From NCBI RefSeq assembly GCF_024298905.1, contig NZ_CP101154.1:3188932-3252931 (forward strand): 64,000 nucleotides of DNA, in the 5' to 3' direction. The translations under genes were made by a program, and so were the position numbers. Source of the stretch: Natronomonas marina (lineage in GTDB: Archaea > Halobacteriota > Halobacteria > Halobacteriales > Haloarculaceae). A model generated the notes under the pieces. The model ran no database searches and had not been told where the DNA came from. It worked only from the letters and a program-made list of their open reading frames with translations. Below are positions 57,682-62,500 of the stretch, one piece after another; position 1 is the first letter of the stretch, and every line of letters starts with the position of its first letter.

Positions 57682-58560
57682 ATGGCTAGCCTCACGGAGG
57701 TCTACGAGGGAGGCAACGGGGCCGGCCTCCGGCGGCTGTACGCCGGTGTCGCGCTGTTCGGGGTCGGCGCGGTCCTACTCGTTGCAGGTATCGTCACGGC
57801 GGCCACCGGCGTCGGGAGTCGGTTCGGCCTCGACGTGTTCGAGGCCCGCCGGGTCGCGGGCGTCCTCGGCGGGGTCGGGTTCCCGGCGGTACTTTTGGGG
57901 ACCATGACCGCGATTCCGCGCACCTCGCGGAAGATCCGCGTCGCCGCGTTCGTCGGCGGCGCCATCTGCGTCGTCGGCGTCGTCCTGTTCCACGGCGCCT
58001 ATCCGACCGACTGGGTCACCGGCTCCGGCAACAGTTCGATGACGCTCGTCGTCGCGTCGGTGTACTTCCTGGGGACGCTCGTCACGTCGTGGTGTCTGTT
58101 CGTCGCCGTCGCCAACTTCAAGGCGCGCAACGACCCCGGCGGCACCGTCAAACTCGAAATCACGAAGGAGGGCGAGACCCGCATTGTCGAGGTGTCCAAC
58201 GACGACCTCCGCGGACGGCTCGGCGGCATCGGCCTGCTCGGGGGAACGCCCGACGGCGACGTCGAGACGCAGACGAACCGCGGCGACTCCTCCCGCCGGT
58301 CGTCGGACCGCTCGCGGTCGGCGTCGACCCGTTCGCCCGATGCCTCGCCCGGCGTCACCGACGGCGGCGCAACGACCGACGACGCGGAGTTCCTCACCGA
58401 CGAACCCTCCCGGCCCCTCGGGGACACCTACTGCGGCAACTGCCAGCACTTCCAGTACGTCCGCACCGACGACGGCATGGCGCCGTACTGCGGCTACCAC
58501 GGCGAGTTGATGGACGACATGGACGCCTGCGAGGAGTGGACGCCGAACACGAACGCCTGA
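57682..58560 (+). CDS. Haloarchaeal membrane protein with C-terminal zinc-ribbon-like domain
   Basis: 292 residues. Four membrane helices (about 15-40, 55-75, 87-105, 118-145) precede a cytoplasmic part. SKY-like TVKLEITKEGETRIVEVSNDDLRGRLGG is a short ordered strand-helix; a Ser/Arg/Asp linker follows. The C-terminus YCGNCQHFQYVRTDDGMAPYCGYHGELMDDMDACEEW has Cys-x2-Cys and Cys/His pairs for a metal. This resembles the widespread uncharacterised DUF7139 type. Function unknown. Confidence 0.75.
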   Translation: MASLTEVYEGGNGAGLRRLYAGVALFGVGAVLLVAGIVTAATGVGSRFGLDVFEARRVAGVLGGVGFPAVLLGTMTAIPRTSRKIRVAAFVGGAICVVGVVLFHGAYPTDWVTGSGNSSMTLVVASVYFLGTLVTSWCLFVAVANFKARNDPGGTVKLEITKEGETRIVEVSNDDLRGRLGGIGLLGGTPDGDVETQTNRGDSSRRSSDRSRSASTRSPDASPGVTDGGATTDDAEFLTDEPSRPLGDTYCGNCQHFQYVRTDDGMAPYCGYHGELMDDMDACEEWTPNTNA

Positions 58561-58651
58561 CGACGACACTCGAACGCCCGAACCGAGGGCGCCGACACCG
58601 CTTTCGACTCTTCCGCCCCGTTGAAACCCTCACAGCGGTACAAGGCGGAAG

Positions 58652-60092
58652 CCCACGGCTTTAGCCGTGGGAGGAAGCCGACACAATTGACACAGAGAAG
58701 CCGTGGTACAGCAGCCTGACATCCGAGTAATTTAAATTTCCGGATGTCTAACAACTAACTAGTGGTGGACGCGAACAGAACGCTCATCCTCCCGCTTGAA
58801 ACACCGACGAGCGATGAGCACGAACGCTTCCACCGAACCGTCGAGAAATACCAGCACTGCCGCAAGCGAGCCCGCGAGTACTGCTGGCAGAATCCCAAGC
58901 AACCTGACGACATCGTAACCTCGAAAAGCGAGGTCGAAGACGCTCTGTACCACGACCTCCGCGAAGAAACCGACGAGCTCCATGCAAATCTCGTACAGAA
59001 AGCCATCAAAGATGTAACCAACGCGATGAGCGCAGCGAAGAAAGCATGGAAGCGTGATGAGCGCATCAGCAAACCAACGTGGGATACCAGCGAGGCATGG
59101 GTGATGACCTACGATACCCGAGCTGGTACGTTCTCCAAGCACAACGCGAGGTTTGCAACCGCGGAAGCAACCGTCGAGCTTGCGTATCAAACACCGTCAC
59201 ATCTCGACGGGACGCTGTACGACAAGTACGTCCTCTCCACGAAGTGGGAGCTAACGACGAGCAAACTTGCCTATCGGGACGGGCAGTACTGGCTCCATCT
59301 CGGCGTTAAACGAGCGCTTTCCGACCAGCACTGGACAGCACGAGTCAACAGAGAGGTTTCGAACGCGCCCAATGAGGATACGAGTCGTGTCCTCGGCGTG
59401 GACCTTAATGTCAAAGGCTGGACGGCTGTAACGAGTGCTGGCGGCTTCCACGGCAACGCTGACTACCTCAACCACCGACGCGATCAGTACGAAGCACTGC
59501 GTGGCGAGCTACAGCAAACGGGAACGCGGAGCGCGTATCTTCGGTTCCACGAGCGAGCTGGTACTGAGTCAGCGTGGTTTGACGAGTACGCCCACCTCGT
59601 CTCGAATGCTATCATAGAAGACGCACTGGACACTCGTTCGACGCATATCGCCTTCGAGAAACTGAAAGGGATTCGCAAGCGGATGAGCAACCTGCCGAAG
59701 TACCAGCAGTGGCTGTTCGGGCGTGTGCAGGAGTACACGGAGTACAAAGCGACTGAACACGGGATTAGCGTTGTGTACGTGAACCCGAAGAATACGAGCA
59801 AGGGGTGTAGTCATACCGAGTGTCGAACGGTGAGCGATTCGAATCGGGGTGAAAAGCAGTTCGAGTGCGTTGGGTGTGGTCGGTCGTGGAACGCTGATTA
59901 TAACGCGGCGCGGAACATCGGGCTACGGCATATTTTCGATTCGTTGCTCCCAGCGAGCCAAACGTGTTCGTCTGGGAAGACCACTTGTCAACTGGCCTTT
60001 ATTTCAGGGGTCCTCTCCGTTACAGAGCGTGACGTAAGTCACGTTTCCAAGGAGTGGATGTCCACTGACAAGCCCACCGCTTTAGCGGTGGG
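58652..60092 (+). mobile_element. IS200/IS605-group solitary tnpB element
   Basis: The tnpB gene is bounded by two hairpins: cccacggc-ttta-gccgtggg at 58652-58671 and cccaccgc-ttta-gcggtggg at 60073-60092. They share loop and flanks (aagcccac...gtggg), and differ by a compensating base pair, as expected for conserved ends or an omega-RNA 3' stem. No tnpA lies in the window, so it is an IS1341-like, non-autonomous element. Exact ends and target motif cannot be set from one copy. The DNA is visibly less GC-rich than the host. Confidence 0.75.
58718..58748 (+). promoter_or_regulatory. tnpB promoter with inverted repeat around the TATA box
   Basis: gacatccg (58718-58725) and cggatgtc (58741-58748) are perfect inverted 8-bp arms around a 15-nt AT-rich spacer containing atttaaat, a strong archaeal TATA box. 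The GTG start lies 13 nt after the right arm, consistent with a leaderless transcript. Confidence 0.55.
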
Positions 60093-60099
60093 TAGCTGA
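58762..60099 (+). CDS. tnpB: TnpB RNA-guided nuclease
   Basis: 445 residues from GTG at 58762. It has an N-terminal helical REC-like part (about 1-130) and a split RuvC nuclease: GVDLNVKGWTAV (Asp214), IAFEKLKGI (Glu299) and NADYNAARNIG (Asp379). The triad is intact. The zinc ribbon SKGCSHTECRTV ... FECVGCGRSW lies between the last two. TnpB proteins are programmed by a transposon-end RNA (omega-RNA) to cut DNA. The last codons run through the right-end hairpin (60073-60092), so coding and RNA functions overlap, as known for this family. Confidence 0.92.
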   Translation: MVDANRTLILPLETPTSDEHERFHRTVEKYQHCRKRAREYCWQNPKQPDDIVTSKSEVEDALYHDLREETDELHANLVQKAIKDVTNAMSAAKKAWKRDERISKPTWDTSEAWVMTYDTRAGTFSKHNARFATAEATVELAYQTPSHLDGTLYDKYVLSTKWELTTSKLAYRDGQYWLHLGVKRALSDQHWTARVNREVSNAPNEDTSRVLGVDLNVKGWTAVTSAGGFHGNADYLNHRRDQYEALRGELQQTGTRSAYLRFHERAGTESAWFDEYAHLVSNAIIEDALDTRSTHIAFEKLKGIRKRMSNLPKYQQWLFGRVQEYTEYKATEHGISVVYVNPKNTSKGCSHTECRTVSDSNRGEKQFECVGCGRSWNADYNAARNIGLRHIFDSLLPASQTCSSGKTTCQLAFISGVLSVTERDVSHVSKEWMSTDKPTALAVGS

Positions 60100-60118
60100 C
60101 CAACTGATAGGAACGGCG

Positions 60119-60146
60119 TGCTGAATATAGAGGGTGGATGCAGCAG
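60119..60146 (+). repeat. Palindromic intergenic element A (half)
   Basis: tgctgaatatagagggtgga followed by tgcagcag is the right arm of the element family seen complete in 61838-61931. Only this arm is present, 20 bp after the tnpB stop. The nearest minus-strand gene stop (60209) lies 63 bp downstream. Confidence 0.65.
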
Positions 60147-60208
60147 TTGGCCGCAGTCTATTTCGCCTCGCTAGTAGCAAAACAGGCGTTGGACGAATGT
60201 GCGCAGAT

Positions 60209-60397
60209 TTATTCGGTACTTGCCCCGAGCTGGTATAGCAACAGGCCGCTAGCTAAGAGAAGCCCCCCAAACGTCCATTCAAATGCACTACCCGGAAGCG
60301 ATTGTGAGTAGCCTAATACTGGGTTAGTGAGGATTATTACACCGGCTACCAGAACAAATAGAGATGCGGAATATTCCGCGGCCTTTTGATAATCCAT
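60209..60397 (-). CDS. Small membrane protein, unknown function
   Basis: 62 residues with two helices (YSASLFVLVAGVIILTNPVLGY and WTFGGLLLASGLLLYQLGA). A TATA-like ctaatatttt box lies about 25-30 nt upstream of the ATG on the minus strand, giving a leaderless layout. It is the only gene between elements A and B. No family recognised. Confidence 0.6.
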   Translation of the reverse strand: MDYQKAAEYSASLFVLVAGVIILTNPVLGYSQSLPGSAFEWTFGGLLLASGLLLYQLGASTE

Positions 60398-60484
60398 CCC
60401 AACAAGATCGTCATATCCGATTTGACTAATATTTTGATGTACTGTCTTGACCGGTCGCCTCTGATCGAATTAGAAAATGACCCT

Positions 60485-60579
60485 ATGCGAGATACGCGCT
60501 CTGTATTCAGCAGGGCCCGTGATACTTACTCAGAGTCTGTCAGATCCCGATTGCTGAATATAGAGGCTGAGTTCAGCAG
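60485..60579 (+). repeat. Palindromic intergenic element B
   Basis: Arms cgcgctctgtattcagca and tgctgaatatagaggctga (the latter reading inverted) surround a core shared with element E. 60495-60566 is identical to 62418-62489 (72 bp, no mismatch). The following about 60 bp resemble the DNA after element D (ctgttcattccaac ... gtgaatcagctgtgag). Confidence 0.75.
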
Positions 60580-60647
60580 ACGGGCTCTGTTCATTCCAAC
60601 CACTCTGCGGTGAATCAGCTGTGAGAACGCGCTTGCGAATGTATCGG

Positions 60648-61187
60648 CTATGCTCCGCTACGACTGTGCTCGTAGACGTAGCTGAAAACGAGGCTGAGTG
60701 GGACGGCTATCCAGATCGTCCACACGACCACTACCAAGATGGTAAGGGGGTACAGCTCAAAGAACGCTCCGAGGAACTCGGTGAGCGAGGTCGGCGGGTC
60801 AACTCCCCCGTATGGGTTCAAAAACTGGTAGCCGTACACCGGAGCCAGTAGCAACCACACGGCAGTTCCGGCAAGGTAGTTTCCGGCGACCGTGACCAAC
60901 GCTGCGACGGCACTGTAGTATGGGACACTCGCCGGCAGGGAGCGCCATGTGAGCGCCCCGACCACGAATCCCGTGGCGATGTACACCGGGGTCGCAGACA
61001 GAATCACCCCTGCGGAACCCACCGTACCCGAAACCAGCGTACTCACCGGAGCAAACACGATTCCACCGGCGAGGACACCGGCGGCCATACTGTAGCCGGC
61101 CCCGACGTCCTGTCGGTCCCCGAGCGGCAACCGTGTCGGTCCGTATCGACCGTACAGCCGCACCACTCGGTCCAGCCTGGCTACCAT
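60648..61187 (-). CDS. Multi-pass membrane protein, unknown function
   Basis: 179 residues from ATG at 61187 (the open frame continues 30 codons upstream into basic, unlike sequence). Four helices: SMAAGVLAGGIVFAPVSTLVSG, VILSATPVYIATGFVVGAL, AVAALVTVAGNYLAGTAVWLLL and YPLTILVVVVWTIWIAVPLSLVF. No motif recognised. It is the only gene between elements B and C; the stop lies 69 bp above the end of B. Confidence 0.65.
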   Translation of the reverse strand: MVARLDRVVRLYGRYGPTRLPLGDRQDVGAGYSMAAGVLAGGIVFAPVSTLVSGTVGSAGVILSATPVYIATGFVVGALTWRSLPASVPYYSAVAALVTVAGNYLAGTAVWLLLAPVYGYQFLNPYGGVDPPTSLTEFLGAFFELYPLTILVVVVWTIWIAVPLSLVFSYVYEHSRSGA

Positions 61188-61403
61188 GACGCTCTGCACT
61201 CGTAATTTGTACTTGAAAAACTTTTCTCCGCCGGCTGGACTGCATCTCGCTGTCCATCTCCCGATCTGGGGCAGCATAGGCTACAGGATAGACCAGATAC
61301 ACAGGTAGAACAGTCCACTCACTGAATAATCGAATACAATCCAATCGATATATTTCTAGTCTACATCGACCGATCCGATCTTCTCCGGTGTCCGCTCTCT
61401 TGG

Positions 61404-61495
61404 CATGCCACATTCGCGCCCTCTATGCAGCAGACCTCTGCAACCCTATTCACCTGATGGCAGAAACAGCCTGACCGATAAAGAGCATATACGGC
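61404..61495 (+). repeat. Palindromic intergenic element C (diverged)
   Basis: attcgcgccctctatgcagca starts the copy. The core cctattcacctgatggcagaaac aligns with element D and the right arm (gataaagagcatata) is degenerate. It stands between the 60648-61187 gene and the plus-strand gene at 61611. The rest of the 61188-61610 gap holds the promoter of that gene and no other feature. Confidence 0.6.
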
Positions 61496-61610
61496 ACTGG
61501 TAGGGACGGTTGATGTTATCCATTGTCTCAGTCACTTGTACCCATTGTGCGTTTGCAGGTAGCAGAAATTCGGTTGCTGAATTTATTATCGGGCCCCGCT
61601 AGTGGAGAGT

Positions 61611-61802
61611 ATGGTCCTCCAGACAGAGAGTGGGAACAGGACACAGCAGGCAGGCGTCGTCGCTGGCAGTGCTGCAGTTATGTTCGCTGCTGCAGCAACG
61701 ACCGATGGACTGTTTTCAGGTGTGATGTTCGGTGCAGCGGTTGTGACGATTCTCTCCGCACTTGCGCTCTATGCGGCCGCCTACCGGGAGAAAGAGAACT
61801 GA
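61611..61802 (+). CDS. Small membrane protein, unknown function
   Basis: 63 residues from the ATG at 61611 (an in-frame GTG at 61602 is possible). A TATA-like tttattat (61582-61589) lies about 25 nt upstream, so a leaderless mRNA is likely. Two helices (GVVAGSAAVMFAAAATTDGLF, MFGAAVVTILSALALYAAAY). It is the only gene between elements C and D, and is on the plus strand unlike the others. Confidence 0.6.
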   Translation: MVLQTESGNRTQQAGVVAGSAAVMFAAAATTDGLFSGVMFGAAVVTILSALALYAAAYREKEN

Positions 61803-61837
61803 TCACGAATTCTCCGATGTGACCGTACTCATCTCAT

Positions 61838-61931
61838 GCTGCATTCGCGCCCTCTATTCAGAAGGCCGCTGCAGACCTACTCAGCTGCTGTCAGAAACGG
61901 TCTGGCCGATATAGAGCGTGGATGCAGCAGA
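61838..61931 (+). repeat. Palindromic intergenic element D (complete)
   Basis: The left arm tgctgcattcgcgccctcta (61838-61857) and right arm tagagcgtggatgcagca (61913-61930) are imperfect inverted repeats of about 25 bp. The core contains ctactcagctgctgtcagaa. This is the most complete copy. The minus-strand gene stop at 62004 lies 73 bp further, and the interval resembles that after element B. Confidence 0.75.
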
Positions 61932-62240: not shown

Positions 62241-62408
62241 ACGGTAGAGCGTCTAAACGGATGGCTGTAAAAACCTATCGTTGCAGAGGCTGTACTTCAA
62301 GAACGGCAGGTCCAGACCGCCACTGCTGTATTCATCCTCTACAAATACCGATAGCTATAACCCCCTGTACTGGCCGATTCACTTCTTTGCTTCTCTCGCC
62401 AAGAACAA

Positions 62409-62500
62409 TGCTGCATTCGCGCTCTGTATTCAGCAGGGCCCGTGATACTTACTCAGAGTCTGTCAGATCCCGATTGCTGAATATAGAGGGTATACTCAGA
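62409..62500 (+). repeat. Palindromic intergenic element E
   Basis: The left arm tgctgcattcgcgctctgta begins at 62409; 62418-62489 matches element B exactly. The right arm (tatagagggtatactcag) is partly degenerate. A further partial left arm, tgctgtattcatcctctac, lies at 62324-62342. Both sit in the 352-bp gap (62241-62592) before the histidine kinase. Confidence 0.75.

What the first reader, a model, noticed from the sequence alone, without database searches (positions are those of the whole stretch)
58652..60099. Solitary tnpB with an intact nuclease triad and covarying end hairpins
Asp214, Glu299 and Asp379 are all present. The two bounding hairpins differ by a compensating pair (cccacGgc/gcCgtggg against cccacCgc/gcGgtggg), so pairing is maintained. 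The last codons pass through the right hairpin, the place where the omega-RNA is made in this family. With no tnpA, the element may persist through its nuclease or have been domesticated.
Basis: partly seen in the sequence, partly recalled or inferred. Interest (0 to 1): 0.55.

Follow-up and report, generated by a model that had tools for sequence, protein, structure and literature searches.

The report
Haloarchaeal RNA-guided TnpB transposon
This is an ordinary small 'jumping gene' of a salt-loving archaeon that carries an intact-looking RNA-guided DNA-cutting enzyme and its guide RNA; its exact ends and likely DNA target could be worked out, but nothing suggests that the cell has taken it over for its own use.

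Summary
Window 58762-60099 encodes a 445-aa TnpB with D214/E299/D379 and four zinc cysteines. It lies in a tnpA-less, IS1341-type IS200/IS605 element. The ends are 58634-60100, not 58652-60099: homology to copies at unrelated sites starts at TCAC and stops at TGAC, and the flanks rejoin without gain or loss into one copy of a dispersed repeat. Both ends keep the transposase-recognition signature: hairpin foot pairs with cleavage tetranucleotide in 23 of 24 left and 30 of 31 right ends. The 3' end encodes a guide-RNA scaffold supported by covariation (97.9% of cells paired, 10 pairs changed on both sides), with a loop that pairs with the terminal tetranucleotide (41 of 42). The scaffold should end at 60100 and the guide start at 60101. 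The protein is under purifying selection (dN/dS 0.11 against L021). Domestication is not supported: 0 of 19 congeners carry a tnpB here. Most likely it is a non-autonomous element, moved in trans by TnpA and retained by guided cleavage of its empty site. New member of a known kind.

The parts
58614..58633 (+). Left half of the dispersed-repeat copy that was the insertion target; its last four bases TCAC (58630-58633) are the left cleavage site and predicted TAM
   Evidence: Homology to element copies at unrelated sites begins at 58630; left flank matches repeat copies in register
58634..60100 (+). Whole IS200/IS605 (IS1341-type) element, 1467 bp, non-autonomous
58648..58671 (+). Left foot GAAG (58648-58651), complementary to TCAC at positions 1, 2 and 4, and left hairpin (58652-58671)
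58762..60099 (+). tnpB, 445 aa, GTG start; D214, E299, D379; zinc cysteines 349, 354, 369, 372
   Evidence: dN/dS 0.107 against L021
59950..60100 (+). Predicted omega-RNA scaffold (its 5' end is approximate), inside the tnpB 3' end
   Evidence: Fold z -3.99; covariation; model R1
59977..59999 (+). Stem 59977-59983 with 59993-59999; loop 59984-59992 (CTTGTCAAC) whose GTCA (59987-59990) can pair with the terminal TGAC
60004..60068 (+). Long stem 60004-60011 with 60060-60068, enclosing an apical hairpin (about 60025-60046); pair 60006-60066 covaries A-U to G-C, both third codon positions
60069..60092 (+). Right foot CAAG (60069-60072), complementary to TGAC at positions 1, 2 and 4, and right hairpin (60073-60092)
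60097..60100 (+). TGAC: right cleavage site, 3' strand of the predicted RNA pseudoknot, and site of the tnpB stop codon
60101..60120 (+). Predicted guide (about 16-20 nt) from flanking DNA; lies in the right half of the target repeat copy, which continues to about 60146
   Evidence: guide position by analogy with ISDra2 (PMC8612924, passages)

Best explanation
A non-autonomous IS200/IS605 (IS1341-type) element that inserted, without target duplication, 3' of TCAC inside one copy of a dispersed haloarchaeal repeat. Shown from sequence: the ends, the intact transposase-recognition signature, an intact TnpB under purifying selection, and a conserved RNA scaffold over the last ~150 nt. Inferred: tnpB transcript is processed into an omega-RNA whose guide is the flanking DNA from 60101; TnpB with that RNA cleaves TCAC + guide, the donor joint left when a TnpA acting in trans peels the element out as single-stranded DNA, so that repair from the sister copy restores the element.
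For: TnpB family and triad. Ends by homology to copies at unrelated sites, by two 99.8% identical copies of another subfamily in the same genome, and by the empty repeat copies. Foot/cleavage-site pairing 23 of 24 and 30 of 31, 0 of 10,000 shuffles. RNA covariation, loop/terminus pairing 41 of 42. Purifying selection. Family spread: matches in 89 of 146 family genomes at E up to 1e-60 and on 98 of 72,556 plasmid records.
Against: No expression, cleavage or excision data. No intact TnpA was found in this genome: its one Y1 match has an in-frame TGA, so it may be immobile at present. The empty copies read TCAG or TCTG, not TCAC, at the junction, and only 5 of 29 examined copies align on both sides. 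Loop pairing was not shown for the sot0042-like subfamily (a matching loop in L041 but not in L042-L045 or L048). No Rfam omega-RNA family matches this locus.
Confidence: 0.88

Rival explanations
1. A domesticated tnpB kept at a fixed chromosomal place for a cellular job such as gene regulation or defence.
For: Intact triad, dN/dS about 0.11, no tnpA beside it.
Against: No tnpB beside the same gene in 19 of 19 congeneric loci; nearest relatives at unrelated sites; intact transposase-recognition ends; purifying selection is shared with the mobile relatives. Conservation within the species could not be tested.
Confidence: 0.05
2. A decaying, inactive insertion whose features are inherited from a recently active ancestor.
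For: No intact TnpA found in the genome; several 5'-truncated relatives are stranded in the same genome; GTG replaces the ATG start of relatives.
Against: Open frame, triad, both ends, stems and loop are all intact here.
Confidence: 0.15
3. The 3' structure is only the transposase's DNA signal and no guide RNA is made.
For: The right hairpin and its foot also serve as DNA signals.
Against: Two stems outside the end hairpin covary and the loop follows the terminal tetranucleotide in three types. Such RNAs are published for haloarchaeal tnpB genes (PMC8303175, passages; PMC12558985).
Confidence: 0.04

Closest known systems
Haloarchaeal IS1341-type tnpB elements with sense-overlapping (sot) / omega-RNAs in Halobacterium salinarum (RF02656, RF02657; PMC8303175, PMC12558985)
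   Different: Neither Rfam model matches this locus, though they match 6 of 20 other tnpB loci scanned from this genome; here the ORF runs through the right hairpin and stops inside TGAC
ISDra2 TnpB (Deinococcus radiodurans; PMC8612924, PMC10097598, passages)
   Same: RuvC D/E/D, CCCC zinc finger, 3' scaffold with stems and pseudoknot next to the guide
   Different: ISDra2 carries tnpA and uses TTGAT; here no tnpA and TCAC
IS608 (Helicobacter pylori)
   Same: Tetranucleotide target and hairpin-foot pairing at both ends (pairing rule recalled; the TTAC target is)
   Different: TCAC/TGAC instead of TTAC/TCAA (TCAA recalled); no tnpA
tnpB copies of uncultured archaeon A07HR60 (L021-L023)
   Same: 79-80% protein identity and the same ends
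   Different: Different flanks; frame broken in L021 and runs of N in the others

Membership tests
RNA-guided endonuclease TnpB family | Score over the curated cut-off of the general TnpB model | tested here: met
   NF040570 138.8 bits, cut-off 100; TNB domain PF07282 69.6 bits, cut-off 26.3
RNA-guided endonuclease TnpB family | RuvC D/E/D triad and four-cysteine zinc finger | tested here: met
   D214, E299, D379; C349, C354, C369, C372 in the sequence and alignment
RNA-guided endonuclease TnpB family | RNA-guided, TAM-dependent double-strand cleavage | not testable with these tools
   Needs a biochemical or plasmid-interference assay
IS200/IS605 superfamily | Subterminal hairpins with feet that pair with the cleavage tetranucleotides | tested here: met
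   GAAG/TCAC and CAAG/TGAC in the window; 23 of 24 left and 30 of 31 right ends of the set
IS200/IS605 superfamily | Insertion 3' of a short motif without target duplication | tested here: met
   Flanks rejoin into a repeat copy of unchanged length; the junction base itself differs from the copies
IS200/IS605 superfamily | Own Y1 transposase tnpA | tested here: not met
   None in the element; hence filed under the tnpA-less IS1341 type
Narrow NCBIfam models IS200_TnpB and IS607_TnpB | Score over cut-off | tested here: not met
   31.5 against 425 and 24.7 against 350 bits
Rfam sot0042 / sot2652 RNAs | Covariance-model match | tested here: not met
   No match at E up to 1 in 58000-61000; not at gathering score in L024
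omega-RNA (general) | Conserved scaffold at the 3' end of tnpB next to the guide | tested here: met
   Covariation and loop/terminus pairing; expression not testable
TldR / nuclease-dead TnpB regulators | Lost RuvC residues | tested here: not met
   Triad intact
Domesticated tnpB | Conserved at the same place in relatives | tested here: not met
   0 of 19 congeneric loci, about 1.5 kb of flank held for most

The most novel reading that the evidence does not exclude
The terminal tetranucleotide (here TGAC) does three jobs: transposase cleavage site paired by the hairpin foot in single-stranded DNA, 3' strand of the omega-RNA pseudoknot paired by an internal loop, and site of tnpB's stop codon. 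Across three tetranucleotide types in this genome family the foot and the loop both change to match, so TnpA specificity and omega-RNA folding would be locked together and evolve jointly. In addition this copy's guide derives from a repeat matched in 74 of 146 family genomes, so the enzyme could cut any other repeat copy that acquires TCAC.
Probability: 0.35. Interest if true: 0.45.

Novelty: new member of a known kind. Interest (0 to 1): 0.3.

Why it matters
It gives a complete, apparently intact haloarchaeal TnpB system with protein, scaffold, TAM, guide and empty site predicted to the base, so it can be tested directly in a laboratory haloarchaeon. It also gives covariation evidence that the transposase cleavage motif and the guide-RNA pseudoknot change together, which bears on how TnpB guides stay tied to their transposons.

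Tried and rejected
Domestication: no tnpB beside the same gene in 19 of 19 congeneric loci. TldR-like regulator: triad intact. Viral carriage: no match in viral contigs with the protein or with 18 nt of the guide region; phage records give only distant TnpBs, all listed at 23-30% identity, whereas 98 of 72,556 plasmid records carry family members, all below 60% identity. A second chromosomal target for the guide: only two other places with 3 mismatches, taken as chance. An ordinary empty site in congeners: no long match to the right flank, which led to the repeat analysis. AlphaFold2 on the window protein with three relatives failed (pLDDT 37.7) and was not used. Sub-threshold Rfam hits Acido-Lenti-1 and HEARO are taken as chance. 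What the dispersed repeat is: its start resembles IS6-type terminal repeats (recalled), but no transposase was tested beside it and a paper search gave nothing usable.

Analyses that first gave another number: the first automatic choice of the loop helix picked the neighbouring hairpin in many rows and gave 14 of 36 (shuffled mean 7.1); limiting the position to the second hairpin gave 41 of 42. The first automatic count of the foot rule gave 48 of 50 for two pairs; the tetranucleotides of L032 and L077 were assigned by hand and a third pair was added. Rows left out: one search lacks L052-L054, L057, L131, L132, L134-L138 and L079 (different or undetected hairpins; their right ends are printed). 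Alignment A3 uses 20 of the 29 right ends (left out: L052-L054 and L057 with long hairpins, L060, L064, L069 and L070 as close to others, and L079, which was wrongly oriented in A2). One search lacks the L041-L048 and L050 subfamilies, for which the looser search found a matching loop only in L041 of the six tried (L041-L045, L048). One search examined 29 of the repeat copies, one per fetched locus.

Full report
What is there. The window is part of a haloarchaeal chromosome (G000:C1:3188932-3252931). The ORF at 58762-60099 encodes 445 aa. It scores as an RNA-guided TnpB (NF040570, 138.8 bits, cut-off 100) with a Cas12f-like TNB domain (PF07282). Asp214, Glu299 and Asp379 are present; the first two are invariant in 24 aligned sequences and D379 is kept where covered. 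Cysteines 349, 354, 369 and 372 form the zinc finger. The start codon is GTG where the nearest relatives have ATG.

Ends. The nearest relatives are three copies in MAG A07HR60 (79-80% identical) with unrelated flanks. DNA homology starts exactly at 58630 (TCAC) in two of the three (the third has Ns there); it stops at 60100 (TGAC) in one and at 60104 in another, the last four bases agreeing by chance, while the third copy is cut short. The element is therefore 58634-60100. Two copies of another subfamily in the same genome, 99.8% identical over 1458 bp, show the same layout with TTAC and TCAA.

Transposase signature. In IS608 (rule recalled, not from a call) bases at the foot of each hairpin pair with the cleavage tetranucleotide. 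Here GAAG pairs with TCAC and CAAG with TGAC at positions 1, 2 and 4. All three pairs are kept in 23 of 24 left ends and 30 of 31 right ends; shuffles average 9.6 and 12.0 and never reach the observed value in 10,000. The types include TCAC/GAAG, TTAC/AAAG, TCAT/GAAA, TTAT/AAAA, TGAC/CAAG and TCAA/GAAT. The exceptions are L041 (left) and L077 (right).

Hairpin covariation. The window's two hairpins differ by one compensating pair, as reported. Among the 20 elements listed such differences between an element's own ends are common; six show none, and L048, L051, L060, L061 and L064 each have a broken pair in one hairpin.

Guide RNA. The last 210 nt fold at -82.9 kcal/mol against a mean of -64.9 for shuffles (z -3.99). 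On 20 relatives, 24 pairs in three helices are 97.9% paired (85.9% after shuffling, 35-44% when slid), and 10 pairs show changes on both sides. Shuffles do not remove relatedness, so this is not a probability. One pair of the long stem is A-U in 11 and G-C in 9 of 20; both bases (60006 and 60066) are third codon positions and the changes are synonymous, so protein constraint does not explain it. The loop at 59984-59992 holds GTCA, complementary to the terminal TGAC. Across TGAC, TTAC and TCAA elements the loop pairs with its own tetranucleotide type and no other in 41 of 42 rows (0 of 10,000 shuffles; exception L064). The sot0042-like subfamily could not be shown to follow this. The layout agrees with the ISDra2 omega-RNA stems and pseudoknot (PMC10097598, passages) and with haloarchaeal omega-RNAs (PMC12558985, abstract and sections 3.3.3 and 4.3). 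Neither Rfam sot family matches this RNA, although they match 6 of 20 tnpB loci scanned from this genome.

Insertion site. The sequence from 60101 belongs to a dispersed repeat with matches in 74 of 146 family genomes (E up to 0.05). In 5 of 29 copies examined, the 24 nt upstream match the window's left flank in register at 16-20 positions, and in each of the five this is the best place in its roughly 3-kb locus. Joined, the window flanks read CCCTCAC|CAACTGATAGG; the closest copies read CCCTCAG|CACCTGATAGG. So the element sits in one repeat copy with no duplication or loss. The junction base differs (TCAG or TCTG in the five copies), so this copy presumably had TCAC before insertion. The guide expected from 60101 is thus repeat sequence. 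No other place in the genome matches TCAC + guide better than 3 mismatches.

Mobility and selection. There are 27 TnpB matches in the genome, some of them pieces of one gene, and matches in 89 of 146 family genomes at E up to 1e-60. The left-hand gene (DUF7139/DUF7140) has a homologue in all 19 other congeneric genomes, and none of the 19 loci has a tnpB near it. dN/dS is 0.107 against L021 (442 codons), 0.134 against L022, 0.196 against L023, and 0.20-0.34 against four more distant relatives. The genome has one Y1 transposase match, with an in-frame TGA; 13 of the 20 genomes of the genus, this one included, have a match.

How it works (inference). A transposase supplied in trans recognises both hairpins and cuts at TCAC and TGAC in single-stranded DNA. 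The tnpB transcript is processed into the scaffold plus a guide read from 60101. TnpB cuts the empty donor joint (TCAC + guide), and repair from the sister copy restores the element. This is the published proposal for ISDra2 (PMC8612924, passages). Nothing here shows expression, cleavage or excision.

Verdict. Real, well formed and ordinary: a new member of the haloarchaeal IS1341-type TnpB elements. The specialist interest lies in the base-exact prediction of TAM, guide and empty site, and in the coupled changes of hairpin foot, cleavage site and RNA loop. Two searches of the open library for this coupling gave no paper and one preprint seen in the listing only; this is not a claim that it is unpublished. 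Gomes-Filho 2015 is not held and is known here only through other papers.

Noticed in passing
G000:C1:3327244-3327387 (-), 1550026-1550178 (-), 1554152-1554297 (-), 1150957-1151090 (+), 1079295-1079437 (-): Five right ends without a full tnpB. Two (1550026, 1079295) keep the whole scaffold with loop and terminus, so they could be guide-only remnants usable in trans; the others are shorter.
   Followed up: partly
G000:C1:1166770-1166889 (+) (L158): A minimal element with a single hairpin between TTAC and GTCAA, as if the left and right ends had fused.
   Followed up: no
G000:C1:2768405-2768761 (+) (L139): The genome's only Y1 transposase match has an in-frame TGA near its start and lies beside an oppositely oriented tnpB.
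   Followed up: partly
window 58614-58633 and 60101-60146; family-wide: Dispersed repeat starting GGCTCTGTTGAAACCCTCAG, matched in 74 of 146 family genomes. Its identity is unresolved; the start recalls IS6-type terminal repeats (recalled, not tested).
   Followed up: partly
window 60485-60566, 61836-61917, 62408-62489 and 61388-61486, 61819-61917: Related repeats recur through the right-hand island; window 61362-61926 is 99% identical to G000:C1:648913-649477.
   Followed up: no
window 58718-58748: Inverted repeat GACATCCG / CGGATGTC around a TATA-like TTTAAAT just upstream of tnpB; not seen as a palindrome in L022.
   Followed up: no
L044 and L045: Two copies of another tnpB subfamily in this genome are 99.8% identical over 1458 bp with different flanks, so mobility was recent although no intact tnpA was found.
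   Followed up: partly
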